A DNA stretch of 64,000 nt from Micromonospora phaseoli (GTDB taxonomy: Bacteria > Actinomycetota > Actinomycetes > Mycobacteriales > Micromonosporaceae), in contig NZ_FNYV01000007.1 in the NCBI RefSeq assembly GCF_900109115.1, positions 124,001 through 188,000 on the forward strand, in the 5' to 3' direction. The stretch's first letter is position 1; the number at the start of each line of letters is the position of its first letter. The notes under the pieces were generated by a model. It worked only from the letters and a program-made list of their open reading frames with translations, ran no database searches and was not told where the DNA came from. Below, in pieces: positions 4,716-15,355 of this stretch. A program made the position numbers and the translations under genes.

Positions 4716-5507
4716 ATGCGTATCGGAGCCCACGTCGATCCGACCGACCCGTTGGCGGAGGCGACCGCCCGGGCGGCAGACGCCGTGCAGTTCTTCCTCG
4801 CCGACCCGCAGGGTTGGAAGGCGCCACAGCCCCGTGCGGACGCCGCTGTGCTGCGCGACGCCGACGTGGACGTCTACGTACATGCGCCCTACGTCGTCAA
4901 TGTCGCGACCAGCAACAACCGCATTCGGATTCCCAGCCGCAAGCTGCTGCTCGCCCACGCCAAGGCGGCCACGGAGATCGGCGCCAAGGGCCTGGTGGTG
5001 CACGGCGGACACGTCAACGCCGGCGACGATCCGGCTATCGGATTCGACAACTGGCGCAAGGCCCTGACATACGCGGCGGAGGCGGGCGGCTTCGGGCTGC
5101 CGGTGCTGATCGAGAACACCGCCGGCGGCGAGCACGCCTGCGCCCGTCGGCTGGACGCGCTCGCCCGGCTCTGGGACGCCGTCGGCGACCACCAGGTCGG
5201 CTTCTGCCTCGACACCTGTCACGCCCACGCCGGTGGTGAGGAACTCCTCGGCCTGGTCGACCGGGTGAAGGCGATCACCGGACGGATCGACCTGATCCAC
5301 GCCAACAACTCCAAGGACGGGTTCGGATCGGGTCGGGACCGCCACGACAACCTGCGCGGCGGCACCATAGACCCGGATCTCGTGGTCGCGGTGATCCGCG
5401 CGGCAGATGCCCCGGTCATCGTCGAGACACCGGGCGGCACCGACGGGCAGAGCGGCGACATCGCCTTCCTCCGCGGCCGGCTCGCCGGGGAGACCTCGGC
5501 GCAATGA
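4716..5507 (+). CDS. nfo: Deoxyribonuclease IV (AP endonuclease family 2)
   Basis: The product is 263 aa. It is a TIM-barrel Zn endonuclease that cleaves 5' of abasic sites in base-excision repair. Metal and active-site motifs are visible in order: [80 protein letters not shown] and VIVETPGG. The reading frame extends upstream to 4446, but that part has no family similarity. ATG at 4716 starts the barrel and follows TAGGCT by 7 bases, suggesting a leaderless mRNA. The stop overlaps the start of the next gene by 4 bases (ATGA), implying translational coupling. Confidence 0.93.
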
Positions 5508-7669
5508 CCACGCAGCACTCCGCCGGCGACGGCACGAAGTCGATCTCCCGAGACACTCGCACGGTTGGCGAGGCAGCGCCGGACGACGCCAAACCCGACC
5601 AGACCCCCGCCGCACCGCCGGATGCCGACCGGACCGGTGAGGACGCGAGTCGGCAGGACGGGCTCGACCAGGTCGAAGCCGCCAAGGACGGGACGGGCCC
5701 GACGCCCGCCGGTCCGGCGAAAGGCGGCGACGACAAGGCCGCGCGGGAGCAGAACAGCGCTGGCGAGGACCTGACCGACGGAGCCAGCAAGGAAGGCAAC
5801 GGGAAGGAAGGCAACGGGGAGGAAGGCAACGGGGAGGACGGCGCTAGCAAGGACGGCAACGCGACGGACGGTACGGCGGGCAGCGGCGGCCGTAAGCCGG
5901 ACCGCTGGGCCGCCTTCGGGCCCGCTCCCGAGTCGGTGCCGACCTGGTACGGCAGGCTGGGTCGACGGGTCGGCCGGCTGCTGATTCACGAGTGGACGCT
6001 GGCCGCGTTCGGCTCACTGGCGCTGGCCGTGCTGATGACCTGGCCGACGCTGCGCTACCCGGCGCACACGCTGCCACAGGACTACTGGGATCCGAGCCTG
6101 CAGGCCTGGCAGATGGCCTGGTCCGGGCACGCTCTGCTGACCGATCCGGCCCAGCTGTGGCACGCCAACTCGTTCTTCCCCGAACGGTGGAGTTTCGCCT
6201 TCTCCGACACGCTGCTCGGGTACGCGCCGGCCGGCATGATCGGTGTCGGCCCCGAGGCCGCCCTGCTCCGGTACAACATCATCTTCGTGCTGGCCCATGC
6301 GCTCGCCGCCTTCGGCGCGTACGTGCTGGCCCGGCAGTTCGGTGCGAGCCGGATCGGGTCCGCGGTGGCCGGGGTCACCTACGCCTACGCGCCATGGCTG
6401 CTGGCCCAGGCCGGTCACCTGCACGTGATATCCAACGGCGGCATCCCGCTGGCGCTGGCCATGCTGGCCCGGGGGCACGGTTGGTCGCTACGGCACGGCT
6501 ACCGACCCGAGCGCCGGCACGAGGGCTGGGTGTACGCCGGCTGGCTGGTGGCGGCCTGGCAGCTGAGCCTTGGCTTCGGTATCGGCCTGCCGTTCGCGTA
6601 CGTGCTGGCCGGCATCGTGCTGGTGGCGGCCGTCATCTGGTTCGCGAAGCGGATCTTCTGGCGGGTCAGGCGTCCCTTCGGTCAGCGACTGTTCGTCGCC
6701 GACCTGATCGGCGGGTTGATCTTCGCCGGTGTGGGGGTCCTGCTGGCCATCCCGTACTTCACCGTCACCCAACTGCACCCGTACGCGGAACGGACGATCG
6801 CCGACATCGCCGTCTTCTCGCCGCCCCCCAGCGGCTTCGTCACCGCGCCCGCCGAATCCCGCGTCTGGGGCGGGCTGCATGAGGGTGCGCGTTCCATCCT
6901 GCCCTGGCATCCGGAGATGACGCTGCTGCCCGGCTTCGCGCTCTACGCGCTGGCGGCCGGCGGCCTCCTCCTGTCCATCTGGACGGTTCGCCAACGCCTG
7001 CTGCTACTCGCCGGGGTGCTGGTGACGATGACCCTGTCGATGGGCACCGAGTTCTTCGACGGCCGCTTCACCTACGTACCGCTCTTCGAGCACCTGCCCG
7101 GCTGGAGCGGTATCCGCACCCCGGGGCGGCTGATGCTCTGGGCCACGCTGCTGCTCGGACTGCTCGCGGCGGGTGCGGTCAGCGCCTTCGCCGAGCGGGT
7201 CCGGGAGATCTCCGCCGAGCGGATTCCCTCCTGGCCGAGCCCGTGGCTGCGGCTGGCCACCCTGATACCCCTGGTTTTGGTCATCGCCGAGGGGACCAAC
7301 AGGACCCCACAGCCGGTGGTGCCGCCACAGCCGGCCGCCATGCGTTCCGTGGAGGGCCCGCTGCTCGTGCTGCCCAGCGGGCAGAACCACGATCAGCCGG
7401 TGATGCTCTGGTCGACCACCCGGTTCCAGGACATCGTCAACGGTGGCAGCGGCTTCGTCCCGCGCCAACTGGACGATGTGCGCCGGGTCGCCATGACCTT
7501 CCCCGACCAGACCAGCGTCGACTACCTGCGCACCCTCGGCGTACGCAACGTGCTGGTGATGCGGGACCGGATCGCTGGCACGCCCTGGGAGGTCAGCGTC
7601 GACGCACCGGTCGACGGGCTGGGCATCACCCGCGAAGAGATCGACTCGGTCGTGGTCTTCCGTCTCTGA
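5504..7669 (+). CDS. Large multi-pass membrane protein, GT-C-like, unknown substrate
   Basis: The product is 721 aa. Residues 1-~130 are a charged, disordered tail including three copies of a 5-residue repeat ([15 protein letters not shown]). From ~165 on there are many hydrophobic helices (e.g. [49 protein letters not shown]). The loop after the first helix ([20 protein letters not shown]) and the C-terminal soluble part (~620-721, with [17 protein letters not shown] and [13 protein letters not shown]) recall GT-C membrane glycosyltransferase-like proteins. The family assignment is tentative. Its start overlaps the endonuclease IV stop, so the two are co-translated. Confidence 0.7.
5789..5833 (+). 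repeat. Three tandem 15-bp repeats inside a coding region
   Basis: Units at 5789-5803, 5804-5818 and 5819-5833 differ only at the first base of the third unit. They encode [15 protein letters not shown]. Such a short array can change length by slippage without shifting the frame. Confidence 0.85.
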
Positions 7670-7713: not shown

Positions 7714-9252
7714 TCACGTGCTCGTGGGCACGGGCGTCGGGGACGGCTCCGTGATCGAACGGCGGGTTCGCCATCGGTCGAGCCAGGGGACGTCCGGAAG
7801 ACCGTTGAGCACGCCGCCGTCCGGGTCGTCGGCGTAGGTGCGGCGCACCGCGTCCCGCTCCGGGTTGAGGATCTCCCGCACCACCAGGACGACCAGCGCT
7901 ACCACGGCGGCCAAGCGCAGGCTCGCGGCCAGCACGAACACGCCCTCCGGGAAGACCGGCTGGCCGGTCGACGCACCGAGCAGTTGGCCGTAGAAGGCGA
8001 CGAAGTAGCAGACCTCGGCCGCCTGCCAGACGAGGAACGCTCCCCACTTGGGCCGGGCGAGCACCACCAGCGGCAGCAGCCAGAGCACGAACTGCTGCGA
8101 CCAGACCTTGCTGAAGATCAGGAACGCGGCGACCACGAGGAAGGCGAGCTGGGCGAGCCGGGGCCGGCGCGGCGCCAGCAGCGCGAGCGCGCCGATGCCG
8201 AGGCAGGCCAGGCCGAACAGGGCGTACGAGAGGTAGTTGAGGGTGGGGATGTTGGCGTCGAGCCACTGGAAGGGGCCCATGCTGGCCGGGTCACCGAACT
8301 TCCCGTCCAGGTAGCGGGTTATGTACCAGAGGGTTCCCCAGTCGATCGGCCGATCGGTGTTCAGCTCGAAGAAGCGCTTCCAGTTTTCCCGCGAGTCGAC
8401 GGGCAGCGCCACCGGCAGGTTCACCAGCACCACCGTCACCGCGGCCGTGAGGATGGAGAGCAGGGCGGCCCGGAGTCGGCCGGCGCGTATCGCCAGCACC
8501 AGGATCGGCCCGAGGATGAACAGCGGCCACATCTTGGCCGCCCCGCCGAGACCGAGCAGCACCCCGGACAGGGCGACCAGCAGGACGCCGCGGCGGCCCT
8601 CCCCGGAGCGCGCCCAGGCCAGCAGGCCGAACGCGGCCAGACCGATGGCGAGCAGGTCCCAGTTGACGGTGGCGGTGAGCAGCAGTGCGGGGGCGAGCGC
8701 GAAGAGCGCGGCATCCCAGGGACGCCGGCGGCGCAGCGCCAGGATCACCGCCACGGTGAACACCGCCAGGGCGCCGAGCACCAGTGCGTTCAGGTTGTAG
8801 AACCACTGCCCCTGATTCATGTCGGGGTTGCCGTCGCCGGCCGCGTGCACCGGCAGCCCGAGCGCTCCCATGAAGTACCCGGTCAGCACCGGGTACTCCA
8901 CCGGATGATCCTGGTAGGGCACGGCACCCTCGTTGAGCCGCTCCGCGTAGTAGAGCGCCAGCACGTCGGTGTAACAGAACCGGGTGTACTGCTCGTTGTT
9001 CTCCCACGCGCCGTCCTGACAGGGCGACTTCTGCACCCAGTGCAGGGCCAGCGTGAGGCAGGTCAACGCGAGGACGATCCGGACCACCGTCCAGAACCGA
9101 CGCTCCGTACCGACGGGTCGGTCGCGGGCGACCGCGTGGTCACCGAGCGGGCCGCCGATCAGTCCGGAGAGTCCCCGGACGAAGCCGTCGGAGCGGGACG
9201 GGTGATCGGAGACATCCGGTCCATCGATGCCGGGCGTCGACTGGCTGCTCAT
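7714..9252 (-). CDS. GT87/DUF2029-like polyprenyl-phosphate-mannose glycosyltransferase
   Basis: The product is 512 aa with about 10-12 membrane helices. Landmarks are an acidic N-terminal loop after the first helix (YTDVLALYYAERLNEGAVPY, then HPVEYPVLTGYFMGAL), an AAKMWPLFILGPI segment, FSKVWSQQFVLWLLPL, and a soluble tail. This pattern fits membrane GT-C enzymes of the GT87 type that use polyprenyl-phosphate-mannose donors for cell-envelope glycans. From memory it corresponds to mycobacterial Rv0051, which lies beside ponA1. Here the insert at 9.25-12.5 kb separates it from ponA. ATG at 9252 is used. The specific acceptor cannot be told from sequence. Confidence 0.72.
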   Translation of the reverse strand: MSSQSTPGIDGPDVSDHPSRSDGFVRGLSGLIGGPLGDHAVARDRPVGTERRFWTVVRIVLALTCLTLALHWVQKSPCQDGAWENNEQYTRFCYTDVLALYYAERLNEGAVPYQDHPVEYPVLTGYFMGALGLPVHAAGDGNPDMNQGQWFYNLNALVLGALAVFTVAVILALRRRRPWDAALFALAPALLLTATVNWDLLAIGLAAFGLLAWARSGEGRRGVLLVALSGVLLGLGGAAKMWPLFILGPILVLAIRAGRLRAALLSILTAAVTVVLVNLPVALPVDSRENWKRFFELNTDRPIDWGTLWYITRYLDGKFGDPASMGPFQWLDANIPTLNYLSYALFGLACLGIGALALLAPRRPRLAQLAFLVVAAFLIFSKVWSQQFVLWLLPLVVLARPKWGAFLVWQAAEVCYFVAFYGQLLGASTGQPVFPEGVFVLAASLRLAAVVALVVLVVREILNPERDAVRRTYADDPDGGVLNGLPDVPWLDRWRTRRSITEPSPTPVPTST

Positions 9253-9395
9253 GACCGTGCATCTTGCCGTATCAGTTGACCGGGTAGAAGTCGAAACCCG
9301 GCTGTTCCTGGAATCCGGCGAAGCGCCACCGGATCACGTGGCGGCTCGGCGCCGGGAGACCAGTACCACGTGCACCGGCGGTCCAATCAATATGG

Positions 9396-9447
9396 GTTCG
9401 ACCGCCAGCACAACATCCGTCGAACTGTCGAACGCTTCCAGAACCCA
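9396..9447. promoter_or_regulatory. Candidate operator: nested inverted and direct repeats
   Basis: GTTCGAC (9396-9402) is inverted as GTCGAAC at 9419-9425. That unit is repeated directly at 9427-9433, 8 bases on. TGGGTTC near 9393-9399 is mirrored by GAACCCA at 9441-9447. The cluster lies 35-85 bases upstream of the -35 of the SARP gene. SARPs bind direct heptamer repeats, but the usual 11-base period is not seen here. Confidence 0.4.
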
Positions 9448-9481
9448 TCCAATGAAAGAGACTTGGCAGCCCGGCCAGGCC

Positions 9482-9509
9482 TTGACACCTATAAATATTA
9501 CGATATCAT
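9482..9509 (+). promoter_or_regulatory. Sigma-70-type promoter of the SARP regulator gene
   Basis: A perfect -35 TTGACA (9482-9487), a 16-base spacer and -10 TATCAT (9504-9509, five of six consensus bases). It lies about 50 bases before the TTG start at 9560. Such a close match is unusual in this genome. Confidence 0.6.
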
Positions 9510-9559
9510 AGGCATCGCCCGAACAAGGCGGGCAGGTCAGAAGACACGGGGGAAATGTC

Positions 9560-10315
9560 TTGGACTTTTGTTTTCTTGGGCCATTGATGTTGAGGCAAGG
9601 AATTTCCGGAGTCGGCATTCCGGGCACCAGGGACCGGAAAATCCTGGCGGCCATGCTCCTGAATTCGAACCGACCGGTGCACATCGATTTGTTGATCGAT
9701 GTGGTGTGGGACGACGATCCACCTGCGACAGCCCGCCAACAGGTACAGAACCGGCTGGGCAGCCTTCGGGCCAGGCTGGGCACCGATGCCCATCGAATCA
9801 ATCGGAACAGCAACCACTACACCCTGGAAGTGGGCAACGAAAAAGTAGACGGCCTGAAATTCCGCAGTCTCTGCACCGATGCAGAAATCGCGGCGAAAGT
9901 CGGCAGCCCGGAAAGAGCCGTTACACTCCTACGGAGTGGGCTGGAACTGTGGCGCGGATCGCCAATCGAGGATATCGAATCAGTCAAGCTACAGGTGGAG
10001 GCCCTGCGTTGGAGGGAATATCATCTGAAGGCGATCGAAACGCTGATCGAAATCGAGTTCAGTCTTGACCGACAACGGTTGCTGACCGCCGATCTGCACA
10101 GCTGGATCGCGAGTTATCCGTACCACGAAGGTCTGCACTGCCGGCTCGCGGAGGCGATGCATGCCGGTGCCCGCACCGCCGAGGCGCTGGGCGTACTGAG
10201 CGGTCTGCGGTCCCGACTGGCGCGGGAGTTGGGGATCAACACAGGTCCGGTGGTAGAGGATCTCTACCACCGGCTTCTACACGGAGCCCGAACGGCGACC
10301 GTCGCGCTCGGCTGA
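9560..10315 (+). CDS. SARP/AfsR-family transcriptional activator
   Basis: The product is 251 aa. The N-terminal ~90 residues form an OmpR-type winged helix (FLGPLMLRQG, RDRKILAAMLLNSNRPVHID, LIDVVWDDDPPATARQQVQN, LGSLRARLGTDAHRI). The rest is a bacterial transcriptional activation domain (ALRWREYHLKAIETLIEIEF, LHSWIASYPYHEGLHCRLAE, GLRSRLARELGINTGPVVED). No ATPase domain follows, so it is a small SARP. These proteins usually activate secondary-metabolite or development genes. TTG at 9560 has GGGGGA about 7 bases upstream. Base composition is anomalous (9841-9900 is about 52% G+C), suggesting horizontal acquisition. It faces the secreted DUF2690-like gene at 10507, a plausible target; this link is inference. 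Confidence 0.87.
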   Translation: MDFCFLGPLMLRQGISGVGIPGTRDRKILAAMLLNSNRPVHIDLLIDVVWDDDPPATARQQVQNRLGSLRARLGTDAHRINRNSNHYTLEVGNEKVDGLKFRSLCTDAEIAAKVGSPERAVTLLRSGLELWRGSPIEDIESVKLQVEALRWREYHLKAIETLIEIEFSLDRQRLLTADLHSWIASYPYHEGLHCRLAEAMHAGARTAEALGVLSGLRSRLARELGINTGPVVEDLYHRLLHGARTATVALG

Positions 10316-10344
10316 GGCTCCGCCACACGAGCGGCACCGACGAC

Positions 10345-10379
10345 GAAAGGGTGGGTCGGGGATCCCGACCCACCCTTTC
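10345..10379. terminator. Hairpin terminator after SARP gene
   Basis: A perfect 16-bp inverted repeat (10345-10360, 10364-10379) with a 3-base loop, ending in CCCTTTC, begins 30 bases after the SARP stop. Confidence 0.85.
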
Positions 10380-10506
10380 ACTCTCACGACCCGCCGTCAC
10401 GGTGACAAGCGTGGTGTTCTCGTCGAGGGATGGTGGTCCGACGGTGATGGATCGGTGAGCATCTCTGGGACCGTCGCGGCACCTAATGTGAGTTGGAGGG
10501 ATCGTC

Positions 10507-11043
10507 TTGCTCGGAAGAAGAAGCGCTCGACTGGCCGCTGTGCTGGCACTCTGCTTCGCCGCGGCCCTGGCCGCGCCGCAGGCGGCCAGCGCGGCACCGG
10601 CCACCACGCCGTCGGAAGTCGCCACGATCAAGGCAGAGGACCTCGACCCGGCGAACGCCATGATGATCCCGGAAGCCGAGCTGCTGTCCACCGGCTGCGG
10701 TGCGGGCTGTGACGGCAAGAATCCGGCGACCTACAAGATCTACCACAGTGGATGTTCGACCTGCTACCACTACTGCTCCGACGACGCGAAGACCGTCGCG
10801 TCCAACACCGACGGAATCAGTCTCGAACTGCGCTACAGCCCTCGCTGCCGGACCGCTTGGGCCAGGGTCGGCTCTGACTTCTACTACCCGACGGTCCGCA
10901 GCTACTACCTCGATGGCCGGGTCCGCACCGCCTACAGCGGTTTCGCCGGCGCCTACTACACACCGATGGTCAACGACGCCAATCTCCTCGCCCGGGCGGA
11001 GGCCGTTGCCGGGCCCACCACCTGGTGGACGAGCAAGTACTGA
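10507..11043 (+). CDS. Secreted DUF2690-like Cys-containing protein A
   Basis: The product is 178 aa. It has a Sec signal peptide (LLGRRSAR-type basic start, hydrophobic AAVLALCFAAALAA, cleavage near ASAAPA). The mature part has the DUF2690-like core CDGKNP...LELRYSPRCRTAWARV and the C-terminal motif YTPMVNDAN. Cysteines cluster at GCGAGC, SGCSTCYHYC and SPRC, suggesting disulfides after export. The start is TTG at 10507, with GGAGGG 6 bases upstream. It is paralogous to the two leftward genes at 11128 and 11741. Function is unknown; the ELRYSxxC core is often read as an extracellular binding domain. Confidence 0.8.
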   Translation: MLGRRSARLAAVLALCFAAALAAPQAASAAPATTPSEVATIKAEDLDPANAMMIPEAELLSTGCGAGCDGKNPATYKIYHSGCSTCYHYCSDDAKTVASNTDGISLELRYSPRCRTAWARVGSDFYYPTVRSYYLDGRVRTAYSGFAGAYYTPMVNDANLLARAEAVAGPTTWWTSKY

Positions 11044-11065
11044 CTCGACCGTCCGGCCAAGGCAA

Positions 11066-11102
11066 CCGGGTCCCTGCGTCGTTGACCGGCGCAGGGACCC
11101 GG
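11066..11102. terminator. Bidirectional terminator between converging DUF2690-like genes
   Basis: A perfect 13-bp inverted repeat (11066-11078, 11090-11102) with an 11-base loop lies between the stops at 11043 and 11128. Confidence 0.75.
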
Positions 11103-11127
11103 CGCACATGACGCCCTGGTCTCAGGG

Positions 11128-11589
11128 TCAGGGGCAGTACTCCATCCACTCCCGCAGATCGGCGTAGTAGAAGTACAGGCAGGCGTCCGGGTTCACGTTG
11201 GCCGCCATCATCGGCGTCCACCCGGTCTCACCCGCATAGGCGGCGAGGGTCTTCTTGTAGAAGACCGTCCCGGCGCCGTTCCAGATGCGTGCATCGCCGG
11301 TGCTACCCGGCGTGTTGGTGTAACGCGTCCAGTAGGCCTGGCAGCCCGACGAGTAGCGCAACTCGACCCAGACACCGTTCTTCGCCCTGCCTGAGGCCGT
11401 GGTCGTGGCCCCTGACGAGCAACCCATCGCCTGCGGGTCCTTCCCGTTGCACGAGGCGTAACCGCCACCGCCCGCGTTACGGCAGCCCTCCGGGACGGCT
11501 GCCGGTCCCGCCATTGCCGACGCCGGCACGCCGACCAGGGCACCGAGCGCCAGGGCGAGCACCACCAGCACATTTCTCGTACGAGTCAT
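11128..11589 (-). CDS. Secreted DUF2690-like Cys-containing protein B
   Basis: The product is 153 aa. The signal peptide is MTRTRNVLVVLALALGALVG with cleavage near AMAGPA. The core is CNGKDPQAMGC...VELRYSSGCQAYWTR, followed by WTPMMAANVN, which aligns with TPMVNDAN of the other two copies. ATG at 11589 is chosen because it begins the signal peptide and has AAGGGA upstream. The frame continues further upstream without signal-like features. Six cysteines in the mature chain are consistent with disulfides. It is the most diverged of the three copies. Confidence 0.78.
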   Translation of the reverse strand: MTRTRNVLVVLALALGALVGVPASAMAGPAAVPEGCRNAGGGGYASCNGKDPQAMGCSSGATTTASGRAKNGVWVELRYSSGCQAYWTRYTNTPGSTGDARIWNGAGTVFYKKTLAAYAGETGWTPMMAANVNPDACLYFYYADLREWMEYCP

Positions 11590-11740
11590 TCCGCATCCCT
11601 TCATCGCTTGAAGACTGGAACGGAAGGTAGTCGGCGACGTCACCTTCTGATCATCACGGCGGCACTGATCCCGTTGTTCCCAGAAGAAGTCCAGCGCGCG
11701 CCGATTCATGCCGTGGTGGACACCAATGTCAAGTCGGGCC

Positions 11741-12289
11741 TCAGTACCAGCGGGTACAGCTCCAATCGGTGCCACTGGCCGGCCAGTAGCAGGCCTGAGC
11801 CTCGAGGTTGGCGTCGTTGACCATGTTGGTCCAGACGTTTCCGTACTCGGAGTAGTTCTCGAGCGTCATGCGGTGGTTGCCGTTGAGGTGGCGACTGACC
11901 ACCTTGATCGCGAGCCATCCGGCACTGGTCCTCGCCCAGGCCGTGCGGCATCGCGGGCTGTACCGCAGCTCGACGCTGCCCGACGGGCTCGACGTGCGGT
12001 ACACGTAGCCGCTGGACAACTTGGGCGTAATGGCGTCCTCAGCACAGGTGTAGTACCTGGTGCCGTCGTAGTAGATCTTGAAGGTCTGCGGATCCTTGTT
12101 GTCACACGAGACTCCGCAGCCGGCGTTGGCGAGCGTCACCGCGTCGAGCCGGACGCCGTCGCCAGCCGCGATCACCGCCTCGACCTCGACGGCGGCGCGG
12201 TCAGGCGCCGCCTGGGCTGAGGCGGGGGCCGCGATCCAGCTCAGGGCGAGGGCCGAGACAAGTCCGGAAATGAGTAGTAGCCGCCGCAT
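11741..12289 (-). CDS. Secreted DUF2690-like Cys-containing protein C
   Basis: The product is 182 aa. The signal peptide is MRRLLLISGLVSALALSWIA, cleaved near AQAAPD. The core is CDNKDPQTFKIYYDG...VELRYSPRCRTAWAR, followed by WTNMVNDANLEAQACYWPAS and a terminal Trp/Cys-rich tail (DWSCTRWY). AGGAGG lies 5 bases before ATG 12289. It is closest to copy A: both share GCGxxCDxK, ELRYSPRCRTAWAR and MVNDANL. It follows copy B on the same strand with a 151-base gap, so each copy may have its own promoter. Confidence 0.8.
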   Translation of the reverse strand: MRRLLLISGLVSALALSWIAAPASAQAAPDRAAVEVEAVIAAGDGVRLDAVTLANAGCGVSCDNKDPQTFKIYYDGTRYYTCAEDAITPKLSSGYVYRTSSPSGSVELRYSPRCRTAWARTSAGWLAIKVVSRHLNGNHRMTLENYSEYGNVWTNMVNDANLEAQACYWPASGTDWSCTRWY

Positions 12290-12459
12290 AGGACCTCCTA
12301 GTGAGGGGATGGGAGGCGACAAGGTATCGATCGTCGCCATCACCACACCATCACCGCGCCATCAGCGTGCTCTCATCGTCTTCGAGCCCCCGGCTCGGTC
12401 ACCGAGTCCACTGGCCGCGCCCCACCACCCACCGCGCCTGCCTCTTCCGCCAACACCAA

Positions 12460-12495
12460 CGGCGGGCGGCCGGACCGAAGTCCGGCCGCCCGCCG
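12460..12495. terminator. Hairpin terminator after ponA
   Basis: A perfect 16-bp stem (12460-12475, 12480-12495) with a CGAA tetraloop lies 14 bases beyond the ponA stop at 12509. Confidence 0.85.
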
Positions 12496-12508: not shown

Positions 12509-15355
12509 TCACTCCCGGTTGGTGGCTCTCGGTGGTAGGAGTCCGCCGCCGCCACCACCGTTGTCCGGTGGGCTGAACGGAAGGCCGTTGTCCGGGTTGC
12601 CGGGGCCATTGTTGTCGCCGCCGTTGTTGTCGCCGCCGTTGTTACCGCCATTGCGGTTACCGCCACCGAGTTGGCAGAGGATGTCGGTCGGCTCGCACTG
12701 CTGCACGTCCGGCGGCGGTGGCGGCGGCGGTGCCTCACCGTTGCCGGCTTCCTCGTCGCCAATCCCGGCGACATCCGGCAGGTCGGACGGGTCGTAACCC
12801 TTCAGCGCCTCGTCCATGTACCGTTTCCACAGCTGCGCCGGTAGGGTGCCACCGCCGATGTTGCTGCCGCCCCGGTCGACGATGGCTCGCTTCTTTGTAT
12901 CGTGGCTACCGATCCACACCGCTGTGGCGACGTTCTTGTCGTAGCCGACCATCCAGGCGTCCTGGTTCTTGCCGGTGTCGCCGAGCTGCCAGGTGCCGGT
13001 CTTGCCGGCGACCTGCCGGCTGTTGGCCAGACTGGCGTTGTTCTTGCCGGGGATCTCCTTGAGCACCGCGGTCACCTCGTCGGCCACCTCTGGCTTGATC
13101 ACCTGCTTGGGGTCGAGCTTCTCGCCCGTGCCGGTGACCTTGTCCCACTTGCCGGTTGCCTTGTTCTGCTTCTCCACGGTCCGCACGAAGTGCGCCTTGT
13201 TGTACTTGCCGCTGTTGGCGAGCGTGGCCAGGCCGTTGACGTGGTCGAGCACCGTGATCGGGTACTGGCCGTAGGCGGCCACCCGGTCGAAGTAGGTAGG
13301 CGCGAGCTTCTCGGGCTTGTTCTTGATCAGGTCGTGCGCCCGTCCCTTGTCGTCCCACATGGTGCGGACACCGGCCCGGCGGGCCATGTCGATCACCTTG
13401 TCCGTGCCGATCTGCTCCGCGATGTGGAAGAACGGCACGTTGTACGAGAGCACGGTCGTCTCCTGCAGAGTGCAGGACTTGTTACAGCTCTGCCGCACGT
13501 CCCGGCCGGCGTTGACGATCTCCTTTTCGAAGCCTTCCGGCTTGAACGGGGTGGCGTCCCAGCGGGACTTCACCGAGATGCCGGCGTCGATGGCTGCGGC
13601 AAGGGTGTAGACCTTGAACGACGATCCCGGCGGATGACCACCGACCAGGTTGCCGTTCTGATCGGTGTTGAGACCCGCGTAGTCGAAGTCCGCACCGCTG
13701 TTACCGCCGTAGTAGGCCAGCACGCGGCCGGTCTTCGCCTCGACGGACACCACCGCCGGCATCAGGTTCTTCGGCTGGTCCGCCAGGAACGTGTCCTTAC
13801 GACCGAGCTGGGCGATCTCCTCCAGCGACTTCTGAATCTTGGGATCGAGGGTGGTGGTGATCCGGTAGCCGCCCTCGCGCAGCTCGTTGACGCAGTTGGG
13901 CTTGTCCGGCGCGCCCGAGTTGGAGCAGAGACCCCACTCCTCCATCTCCTTGCGGACATAGTTGATCACGTTGCCGCGCGGGGAGGCCACTCCGAAACCG
14001 TTGTCCTTCTTCGACTTCTGGACCTTCGGGTACTCGGCGGGCCGCTCGGGCTTACCCGGTACGCCGAGCCAGCCCTCCTCGACCATCCCGTTGATCACGT
14101 ACTCCCAGCGGGACTTGGCGTCGACCTCGTTGGTCTCCGGGTCGAACCCCGGGTGGGTGGCGCTGGCGACGGGCTGCTTGATCAGCGCGGCGAGCACCGC
14201 CCCCTGGGCCGGGTTGAGCTTCTTCGCGGTGGTGTTGAAGTACGTCTGAGCCGCCGCCTCGATGCCGTACGCGCCCCGGCCGAAGTAGATCACGTTGAGA
14301 TAGTTCTCCATGATCTCTTCTTTGGTGAACTCGTCGTTCAGCTTGGAGGCGAGGATCGCCTCCTTCACCTTCCGCGCGTAGCTGTCGTCCTGGAGGTTCT
14401 CGTAGGCGTTGCGGGCGTACTGCTGGGTGATGGTCGAGGCACCCTGCTTGTCGCCGCCGGAGAGATTGTTCCAGGCGGCCCGGGCGATGCCCTTGTAGTC
14501 GACGCCCGAGTGCCGGTAGAAGTTGCGGTCCTCGGCGGCGGCCACGGCGTTGCGCACGTGCTCAGGGATGGCGTCGATGGTGACGAAGGTGCGGTTCTCG
14601 TTGCCGAGCTTGGCCACCAACGTCTTGCCGTCCTTGGCGTAGACGATGGTGGAGAGCGGCAACGGGATCTCCTTGGGCAGCACCACGTTGGTCGAGTAGT
14701 AGGTGAACCCGACCACACCGATGCCGGCCAGCATGATGAACACCGCGAAGCCGGCGATCAGCATGTTGAGCCGCTTGCGCTTGCGCGCACGGGCCGCTCC
14801 GCCTGGATCACGGCCGCCGCGACCTGGTCCGGTCGGACCGCCGGGCCGACCCGGGCCGCCCGGCCCGCCGGGACCACCGACGCTCGCCCGGGCCACTGCG
14901 GCCCGGGCGCCGGGACCAGCCACCGACGCCGAGCCGACGCTCGCCCGGCCGGCCGATGCCGCGCCGACGGCGACCGAGGCACGTCCGGGCCCGGCCGGCG
15001 ACACCGGCACCGAGGCACGACCGGCCCGGCCCGGGGCCGGGGACACCGGCACCGAGGCACGACCCGGCGCCGCCGGCGAGACCGGCACCGAGGCACGGCC
15101 GGGTCCGGCCCGGCCGACCGGTGCCGCGCCGGTGGACCCGTGGCGCGGTGGAACGCTCGCCGAGCCGCCTACCGAGGCACGACCACCGACCGAGGCGCGG
15201 GCCGACGGGCTGGCACCCTCCGGCCCGGTCGACCAGTTGACGCCGCGCGGTTCACCACCCTGGCGGCGGTACGCGTCGTCCGCCTGCCCCGGGTCGTCCT
15301 GGCCCGGAATGCGGGCCCGTCCGCGCGAGGAGCTGGGATCGCCGTACGAGTTCAT
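12509..15355 (-). CDS. ponA: Bifunctional class A penicillin-binding protein
   Basis: The product is 948 aa. Residues 1-~190 are cytoplasmic and disordered, with many RASV(PV)SP repeats. A basic KRKR stop precedes a membrane anchor at ~197-219. The glycosyltransferase (GT51) domain has its catalytic Glu in EDRNFYRHSG (~275) and QGASTITQQYARNAY. The transpeptidase has SxxK at Ser578 (GSSFK), SYN at 637-639 and KTG at 785-787. The tail is Pro-, Gly- and Asn-rich. It polymerises and cross-links peptidoglycan outside the membrane. From memory, neighbours DUF5318, PadR and ino1 match the ponA1 locus of mycobacteria and streptomycetes. Confidence 0.96.
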   Translation of the reverse strand: MNSYGDPSSSRGRARIPGQDDPGQADDAYRRQGGEPRGVNWSTGPEGASPSARASVGGRASVGGSASVPPRHGSTGAAPVGRAGPGRASVPVSPAAPGRASVPVSPAPGRAGRASVPVSPAGPGRASVAVGAASAGRASVGSASVAGPGARAAVARASVGGPGGPGGPGRPGGPTGPGRGGRDPGGAARARKRKRLNMLIAGFAVFIMLAGIGVVGFTYYSTNVVLPKEIPLPLSTIVYAKDGKTLVAKLGNENRTFVTIDAIPEHVRNAVAAAEDRNFYRHSGVDYKGIARAAWNNLSGGDKQGASTITQQYARNAYENLQDDSYARKVKEAILASKLNDEFTKEEIMENYLNVIYFGRGAYGIEAAAQTYFNTTAKKLNPAQGAVLAALIKQPVASATHPGFDPETNEVDAKSRWEYVINGMVEEGWLGVPGKPERPAEYPKVQKSKKDNGFGVASPRGNVINYVRKEMEEWGLCSNSGAPDKPNCVNELREGGYRITTTLDPKIQKSLEEIAQLGRKDTFLADQPKNLMPAVVSVEAKTGRVLAYYGGNSGADFDYAGLNTDQNGNLVGGHPPGSSFKVYTLAAAIDAGISVKSRWDATPFKPEGFEKEIVNAGRDVRQSCNKSCTLQETTVLSYNVPFFHIAEQIGTDKVIDMARRAGVRTMWDDKGRAHDLIKNKPEKLAPTYFDRVAAYGQYPITVLDHVNGLATLANSGKYNKAHFVRTVEKQNKATGKWDKVTGTGEKLDPKQVIKPEVADEVTAVLKEIPGKNNASLANSRQVAGKTGTWQLGDTGKNQDAWMVGYDKNVATAVWIGSHDTKKRAIVDRGGSNIGGGTLPAQLWKRYMDEALKGYDPSDLPDVAGIGDEEAGNGEAPPPPPPPDVQQCEPTDILCQLGGGNRNGGNNGGDNNGGDNNGPGNPDNGLPFSPPDNGGGGGGLLPPRATNRE

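What the first reader, a model, noticed from the sequence alone, without database searches (positions are those of the whole stretch)
9253..12495. Accessory insert: SARP regulator plus three secreted DUF2690-like paralogs breaking a conserved locus
The glycosyltransferase-ponA neighbourhood is ancient, yet here 3.2 kb of foreign-looking DNA lies inside it. It has a SARP gene with ~52% G+C stretches and a near-consensus promoter, then three exported Cys-containing paralogs sharing C(D/N)xK, ELRYSxxC and TPMVNDAN-type motifs, two of them facing the first. A SARP next to an exported protein family rather than a biosynthetic cluster is unusual. The system may be an induced, secreted binding or defence module beside cell-wall genes.
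Basis: partly seen in the sequence, partly recalled or inferred. Interest (0 to 1): 0.72.

Follow-up and report, generated by a model that had tools for sequence, protein, structure and literature searches.

The report
SARP-controlled secreted-protein regulon in Micromonospora
A regulator of a type best known for switching on antibiotic genes appears here to control a scattered set of secreted proteins, three of unknown function beside it and two large predicted hydrolases elsewhere in the genome, each with the same distinctive switch sequence upstream.

Summary
Between a GT87 gene and ponA lie a small SARP (9560-10315, +) and three DUF2690 genes with signal-like leaders (10507-11043 +; 11128-11589 -; 11741-12289 -). 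It is accessory but not a fresh arrival: the SARP orthologue occurs in 7 of 61 sampled genomes of the genus, always at this locus with DUF2690 genes. In four of these, and in two further named species, the locus also holds very large secreted-looking proteins (weak SLT lysozyme-like region, Golvesin_C, some with a GDSL hydrolase).
The main new result is an operator: three GGTGATG-type heptamers at exact 11-bp period, the classical SARP-box layout, in front of 14 of 16 module-locus DUF2690 genes and none of nine SARP genes. A matrix trained only on DUF2690 promoters puts module genes in all 21 top places among 424 gene upstreams; 11 of the 21 were not in training, most at unlinked loci. In the window's own genome it picks two distant golvesin-SLT-GDSL genes.
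Best reading: a SARP acting on a dispersed regulon of secreted envelope-acting hydrolases and Ig-like DUF2690 partners. The regulatory part is well supported in silico; the biochemical role (antagonism, remodelling or self-protection) is inferred.

The parts
9482..9509 (+). SARP promoter TTGACA-N16-TATCAT
   Evidence: 11 of 12 matches; TTGAC[A/G]-N16-TAnnnT upstream of 6 of 9 SARP genes examined; no operator copy here
9560..10315 (+). small SARP (winged helix + BTAD), TTG start, 251 aa
   Evidence: dN/dS 0.17 against M. andamanensis
10345..10379 (.). perfect 16-bp hairpin between SARP and DUFa (likely terminator)
   Evidence: I6
10432..10460 (+). operator of DUFa: three heptamers, 11-bp period, 17 of 21 matches
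10507..11043 (+). DUFa, DUF2690 protein with signal-like leader, 178 aa
   Evidence: AF2 model of the mature part pLDDT 85.9
11066..11102 (.). hairpin between convergent DUFa and DUFb (likely terminator)
   Evidence: I9
11128..11589 (-). DUFb, DUF2690 protein with signal-like leader, 153 aa from ATG at 11589
11638..11666 (-). operator of DUFb (15 of 21 matches), followed 8 bp later by TACCTT
11741..12289 (-). DUFc, DUF2690 protein with signal-like leader, 182 aa from ATG at 12289
12338..12366 (-). operator of DUFc, the best copy (20 of 21), followed 11 bp later by TACCTT
12460..12495 (.). perfect 16-bp hairpin downstream of ponA (likely terminator)
   Evidence: I8
7714..9252 (-). flank: GT87 membrane glycosyltransferase
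12509..15355 (-). flank: ponA, class A penicillin-binding protein (Transgly + Transpeptidase)
5504..7669 (+). flank: 721-aa protein without a Pfam hit (called GT721 here), conserved next to GT87

Best explanation
The SARP is made from a housekeeping-type promoter and binds three 11-bp-spaced heptamers (consensus GGTGATG) at its target promoters, recruiting RNA polymerase. Its targets are the three DUF2690 genes beside it and at least two unlinked genes of the same genome for 1336-1339-aa secreted-looking proteins with a lysozyme-like (SLT) region, a Golvesin_C-like domain and a GDSL hydrolase domain. The cell thus co-secretes envelope-acting hydrolases and small disulfide-bonded Ig-like DUF2690 proteins. 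I infer that DUF2690 binds a wall or glycan ligand or the hydrolase itself, helping to target it or protecting the producer. Shown here in silico: gene content, co-occurrence, operator, SARP clade. Inferred: binding by this SARP, activation, secretion, enzyme activity, the role of DUF2690.
For: Operator: in 21 module upstreams other than the two from which the consensus was taken, 14 reach 15 of 21 matches at period 11 and at most 6 of 21 at any other period from 7 to 22; 0 of 9 SARP upstreams do; on the reverse strand 2 of 21 do; of 300 letter-shuffled heptamers only the consensus itself reaches the observed mean. On both strands of the 64-kb window only the DUFa and DUFc promoters reach 16. 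A matrix trained on 14 DUF2690 promoters: the 21 highest of 424 gene upstreams are all module genes (12 DUF2690, 8 golvesin, 1 p526; 11 of the 21 not in training). With the 18-site matrix the two unlinked golvesin genes of this genome score 23.1 and 19.9 against a background maximum of 13.4 over 121,488 positions. Of nine golvesin genes fetched afterwards 4 have the box (15.7-24.9). Own-genome loose pattern: 3 of the 14 sites with at most 2 mismatches are the DUFc and these two golvesin promoters. A -10-like [TC]AnnnT starts 8 or 11 bp after the third heptamer in up to 11 of 27 promoters. Co-occurrence: golvesin in 6 of 7 SARP genomes against 5 of 54 others, Fisher p 5e-5, relatedness not corrected. 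The exception, Micromonospora sp. CP22, has an in-frame stop in the SARP and a broken DUFa. The module SARPs (CP22 left out) plus paralogues of V. sioxanthis, M. lutea and M. musae form a 100/99 clade, 10 of 11 members beside or one gene from DUF2690 or golvesin genes. SARP operators of three heptamers with 4-bp spacers are established (PMC3367932, passages; PMC10936776, passages).
Against: No binding or expression data. The held-out test was not blind: I had seen exact repeats in a few of those upstreams before fixing the consensus. Of 30 golvesin-type genes scored, 13 have their own box at 13 or more (9 of 21 with the DUF2690-only matrix; 4 of 9 with the 18-site matrix); four more follow a p526 gene that has one (13.0-22.2). 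The other 13 do not pass: five of the C19 type (two of them assigned by eye) and eight others (G052, G003, chaiyaphumensis copy 1, KC213 ponA-locus copy from its first start, lutea C1 at 12.9, sio C2, KC213 C330 and C301). In the module locus M. mirobrigensis DUFc and KC213 DUFa have only weak copies. Eight non-module genes of 424 score 13.3-17.1. Genomes without this SARP orthologue also carry boxed golvesin genes (G001, G023, G051), so other SARPs must read the box. The loose genome-wide pattern is near background overall (154 sites against 129 in the control), so the regulon is not bounded. The SLT match is below Pfam's cut-off and its fold was not recovered. DUF2690's ligand is unknown.
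Confidence: 0.62

Rival explanations
1. Self-protection pair: DUF2690 proteins are secreted inhibitors or wall shields that keep the co-regulated SLT-type hydrolase from lysing the producer, like small disulfide-rich lysozyme inhibitors.
For: Shared operator and linkage of DUF2690 and golvesin-SLT genes; small Cys-containing beta fold; five DUF2690 genes in this genome.
Against: 12 of the 14 DUF2690-positive genomes of the phylum sample have no golvesin-SLT gene, and DUF2690 also follows an HTH domain in other proteins, so inhibition of this enzyme cannot be its general role; no structural match to a known inhibitor stands out.
Confidence: 0.2
2. Developmental wall remodelling: the SARP drives secreted hydrolases and binding proteins for hyphal or spore-wall maturation; the place beside ponA reflects function.
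For: Flanking ponA and glycosyltransferase genes; wall-hydrolase-like motifs.
Against: The SARP orthologue is in only 7 of 61 species of the genus, which is unlike a core developmental function; DUFc-type genes and golvesin genes sit at other loci too.
Confidence: 0.2
3. The operator similarity is common ancestry of duplicated DUF2690 promoters rather than SARP binding, and the SARP acts elsewhere.
For: The DUF2690 genes are paralogues; V. sioxanthis keeps DUFa with the repeats but has no SARP hit at this locus.
Against: The box also precedes golvesin and p526 genes, which are not DUF2690 relatives by Pfam, at a fixed 11-bp period; V. sioxanthis has a clade-mate SARP elsewhere.
Confidence: 0.08
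4. Recently acquired foreign or mobile cassette.
For: SARP gene and promoter are low in G+C; patchy distribution; transposase-like ORFs, judged by eye, in the same gap of G040 and near the module in G052.
Against: Same locus in divergent species, near-normal G+C of the DUF2690 part, no recombinase recognised in the insert, constraint equal to a neighbour.
Confidence: 0.1

Closest known systems
Small SARPs (ActII-ORF4/DnrI type) and the AfsR SARP domain
   Same: Winged helix plus BTAD architecture; predicted targets with heptameric direct repeats at 11-bp period and a -10-like element close behind (PMC10936776 and PMC3367932, passages)
   Different: No recognisable biosynthetic genes beside it; predicted targets are secreted-type proteins at dispersed loci; heptamer GGTGATG instead of, for example, CGGCAAG (PMC3367932, passages)
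DUF2690 (PF10901) family
   Same: All three proteins pass the Pfam cut-off; Cys pattern and ELRYS-C-W core
   Different: The DUFa/DUFc subtype returned 12 loci in a pattern-based scan of 84,980 species: 11 Micromonospora or Verrucosispora and one Actinokineospora, whose gene has no box; the scan may leave out records very near the window
HTH_31-DUF2690 proteins divergent from a small DUF2690 gene
   Same: Regulator gene beside a secreted-type DUF2690 gene (L111, L112, L113)
   Different: The regulator carries the DUF2690 domain itself; no box at the three genes tested
Golvesin_C / SLT / GDSL large proteins
   Same: Domain hits in the partner genes; GDSL part matches PDB 4hyq phospholipase A1, E 1.6e-9
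   Different: Outside the window; tied to it by operator, by co-occurrence, and by gene neighbourhood in relatives

Membership tests
SARP family activator | BTAD domain | tested here: met
   PF03704 E 1e-27, 97.7 bits against cut-off 22.1
SARP family activator | N-terminal OmpR-type winged helix | tested here: inconclusive
   PF00486 23.4 bits against cut-off 26.2; aligned over this region with its orthologues
SARP family activator | Operator of heptameric direct repeats at 11-bp period in target promoters | tested here: met
   In silico only; binding itself not tested
DUF2690 (PF10901) | Pfam gathering score | tested here: met
   47.8, 40.6, 44.6 bits against 23
DUF2690 (PF10901) | Export | not tested
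   Sec-type leader read by eye from the sequence; no predictor or experiment
Golvesin-SLT-GDSL partner proteins | SLT (PF01464) above cut-off | tested here: inconclusive
   20 of 21 members match weakly (best E 2e-4); 18 bits against 21.3 for member 1; AF2 model pLDDT 54.5, no fold match
Golvesin-SLT-GDSL partner proteins | Golvesin_C (PF25275) above cut-off | tested here: inconclusive
   C10 gene 48.7 against 31.6 (above); C16 gene 25.1 (below)
Golvesin-SLT-GDSL partner proteins | GDSL (PF13472) above cut-off | tested here: inconclusive
   31.2 (C16) and 26.3 (C10) against 32.9; C16 matches a solved phospholipase A1 at E 1.6e-9
Known anti-phage defence systems | match to a PADLOC model | tested here: not met
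   0 hits at E 0.01 for 6 proteins
Mobile genetic element | recombinase gene or long flanking direct repeats in the insert | tested here: not met
   no such ORF recognised by eye; longest direct repeat 27 nt at 78% and not flanking

The most novel reading that the evidence does not exclude
A dedicated SARP clade governs a dispersed antagonism system of Micromonospora: large exo-hydrolases that attack both murein and lipid of neighbouring cells, released together with Ig-like DUF2690 proteins that aim them or make the producer immune. SARPs would then be general switches of interspecies warfare, acting on protein weapons as well as antibiotics.
Probability: 0.22. Interest if true: 0.82.

Novelty: new variant of a known kind. 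Interest (0 to 1): 0.62.

Why it matters
SARPs are used as beacons for antibiotic clusters (PMC12224297, title and abstract start in the listing). Here one apparently commands a secreted-protein regulon spread over the chromosome, with an explicit operator that makes the claim directly testable. It also gives DUF2690, a family named in one paper of the searched library (listing only), a concrete functional context: a shared operator with putative wall and lipid hydrolases.

Tried and rejected
Foldseek and VIA-align on the DUFa model gave only weak Ig-like sandwich matches (best Z 5.5: MspA rim domain and CBM56; best Foldseek E 0.033), too weak to name a ligand. Sequence search of the PDB gave one chance-level hit for DUFa (E 0.19) and none for the DUF2690 alignment. 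AF2 of the SLT region failed (pLDDT 54.5); its fold search gave one meaningless match (E 8.2) and the PDB profile search none. Rfam found only two tRNAs in the window. PADLOC and PHROGs gave no hits. NCBIfam had no useful model for the golvesin or p526 proteins. The two golvesin genes found outside the genus in the phylum sample (G188, G061) have no DUF2690 hit and no box of 13 or more in the 16 kb around them, so the link is not general. The loose whole-genome pattern is near its control level. My follow-up of those sites scored one strand of unoriented loci and is not used, except that the C24 site overlaps a predicted start codon and may be chance.

Novelty searches: DUF2690, 1 paper; YjfA of Bacillus subtilis (I recall it as a DUF2690 member), 5 papers, listing only; SARP with CHAT and DUF2690, 0; SARP with Micromonospora, secreted protein and regulon, 0; SARP with lytic transglycosylase, 127 papers holding two of three terms, 15 listed, none of those 15 with the transglycosylase term; SARP with secreted, cell wall, Micromonospora and transcriptional activator, 0. 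Papers seen as passages: PMC3367932, PMC10972967, PMC10936776. All others: search listing only.
Full report
1. What is there. Between GT87 (7714-9252, -) and ponA (12509-15355, -) are a small SARP (9560-10315, +) and three DUF2690 genes, DUFa (+), DUFb (-) and DUFc (-). Strong hairpins follow the SARP, DUFa and ponA, so each module gene is probably its own transcription unit; this is inference.

2. Distribution. In 61 genomes of the genus, GT87 is in 61 and DUF2690 of any kind in 20. The SARP orthologue is in 7: the six relatives have 46-75% identity and at least 243 bits, and the next protein in the list has 133. All 7 lie at the GT721-GT87-ponA locus with one to three DUF2690 genes. The order differs: genes sit in the GT87-ponA gap, in the GT721-GT87 gap, or both. 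In G019, G032, G034 and G052 the locus also holds two very large secreted-looking proteins, and in three of these a 522-526-aa protein with a leader (p526). A pattern-based scan of 84,980 species with a DUFa/DUFc alignment returned 12 loci: 11 from Micromonospora or Verrucosispora and one from Actinokineospora. Two further named species, M. musae and Micromonospora sp. KC213, have SARP, DUF2690 and one large gene together at this locus.

3. The large partner. Pfam gives Golvesin_C (above cut-off in some members), a GDSL domain just below cut-off in the longer ones, and a weak SLT domain. Across 21 homologues the SLT region keeps Q-E-x-N, GYG..Q and WAYN-x-G (I recall these as the SLT motif pattern), and 20 of 21 match SLT weakly. 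The genome of the window has three such genes, all on other contigs. They occur in 11 of 61 genus genomes (one, G044, by a partial match only): 6 of the 7 with the SARP and 5 of the 54 without (Fisher p 5e-5, relatedness not corrected). The one SARP genome without them, G041 (CP22), has a stop in the SARP and a broken DUFa. Four further named genomes with module-type SARPs or DUF2690 genes each have 2-4 of them; Actinokineospora has none. In a 296-genome phylum sample 3 genomes have them and 14 have DUF2690, 2 both, so DUF2690 in general is not tied to them.

4. The operator. Exact 11-bp repeats upstream of DUFc drew attention, with shorter ones at a few other genes. The consensus taken from DUFc of the window and of M. 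andamanensis, three GGTGATG at period 11, was tested on the other 21 module upstreams: 14 reach 15 of 21 matches at period 11, at most 6 at any other period from 7 to 22, 2 on the reverse strand, and 0 of 9 SARP upstreams. In the 64-kb window only the DUFa and DUFc promoters reach 16; DUFb reaches 15. In 638 kb of fetched loci (44 loci, some overlapping) there are 17 site clusters at 16 or more: 14 lie in front of a DUF2690 or golvesin gene (two of them one gene seen in L127 and L163), one in front of a 170-aa secreted-looking gene beside a golvesin gene, one at a golvesin start region inside a DUF2690-like gene, and one inside an unrelated gene.

5. Unlinked targets. A matrix from 14 DUF2690 promoters was run on 424 gene upstreams (longest-ORF starts). 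The 21 best (18.6 or more) are 12 DUF2690, 8 golvesin and 1 p526 gene; 11 of the 21 were not in training. Of 34 genes at 13 or more, 8 are not module genes and score 17.1 or less. Golvesin genes: 9 of 21 pass 13, and four more lie behind a p526 gene that passes. For the window's genome the C16 and C10 golvesin genes score 20.1 and 18.6 with this matrix, and 23.1 and 19.9 with the 18-site one (background maximum 13.4 in 121,488 positions); the C19 gene does not. Nine golvesin genes fetched later: 4 pass (sio C5, KC213 C115, musae C15, lutea C11), 5 do not. The HTH/secreted DUF2690 pair of this genome and the Actinokineospora gene have no box. So the box marks a subset, not every DUF2690 or golvesin gene.

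6. Which SARP reads it. V. sioxanthis and M. lutea have boxed genes; V. sioxanthis has no SARP hit at the ponA locus (the ponA locus of M. lutea was not looked at). Both have a paralogue elsewhere, in M. lutea one gene away from a golvesin gene with a weaker box (15.4, or 12.9 with the DUF2690-only matrix). A second M. musae SARP lies beside a DUF2690 gene. These and the module SARPs form one clade (100/99; bootstrap not fully settled). The M. endophytica SARP beside a golvesin gene is its sister with low support (86/66), and SARPs near golvesin genes of G023 and G051 lie outside.

7. Mechanism. Operators of heptamers with 4-bp spacers are typical for SARPs (PMC3367932, passages), and the 3' repeat lies 8 bp from the -10 (PMC10936776, passages). 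Here a -10-like [TC]AnnnT starts 8 or 11 bp after the third heptamer in up to 11 of 27 promoters, the stricter TAnnnT in up to 6. The SARP itself has a TTGAC-type promoter in 6 of 9 genomes and no box. I conclude that the SARP activates this secreted set. That the set acts on cell envelopes rests on weak SLT and moderate GDSL evidence; that DUF2690 binds a ligand or partner rests on an Ig-like model without a clear relative.

8. Selection. dN/dS between the window and M. andamanensis is 0.17 (SARP), 0.15 (DUFa), 0.18 (DUFc) and 0.16 (GT87) (DUFb has no counterpart there), so the module is maintained. In V. sioxanthis DUFa is kept without a local SARP, and DUFb was not found at the locus of M. 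andamanensis: the module is being reshuffled in this clade.

Noticed in passing
G000:C16:98920-100067 (L111 5768-7314); also L112, L113, L138: A divergent pair: an HTH_31 protein with a hydrophobic segment (by eye) and a C-terminal DUF2690 domain, facing a small secreted-type DUF2690 gene. Two DUF2690 hits about 1 kb apart on opposite strands occur in 10 of 61 genus genomes (my count; three read) and in a distant phylum member (L138). It looks like a membrane sensor that shares its outer domain with a secreted protein.
   Followed up: partly
L116 9404-9889, L120 5382-5933, L123 9355-9846, L097 12291-12905: Small secreted-looking proteins next to other golvesin genes are probably divergent DUF2690 members: found by an iterated home-made HMM; three of the four were scanned with Pfam and hit only DUF2690, below its cut-off.
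   Followed up: partly
L101 5216-6108 (G040) and L097 13250-14511 (G052): ORFs that look by eye like transposases, in the same GT87-ponA gap or close to the module: the locus may be an insertion-prone site.
   Followed up: no
L163, L164, L165 (M. endophytica, V. sioxanthis, M. lutea): A boxed DUFc-type gene sits at a second conserved locus, beside a gene that looks by eye like a 2-isopropylmalate/citramalate synthase.
   Followed up: partly
G000:C24:91115-91143 (L170): The only other operator-like site in the own genome under the stricter pattern; it overlaps the start of a lipoprotein-like ORF, so it may be chance.
   Followed up: partly
L122 4076-5023 (G003): A ricin-type lectin domain fused to a weak DUF2690 domain, next to a 1571-aa golvesin-type gene.
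   Followed up: no
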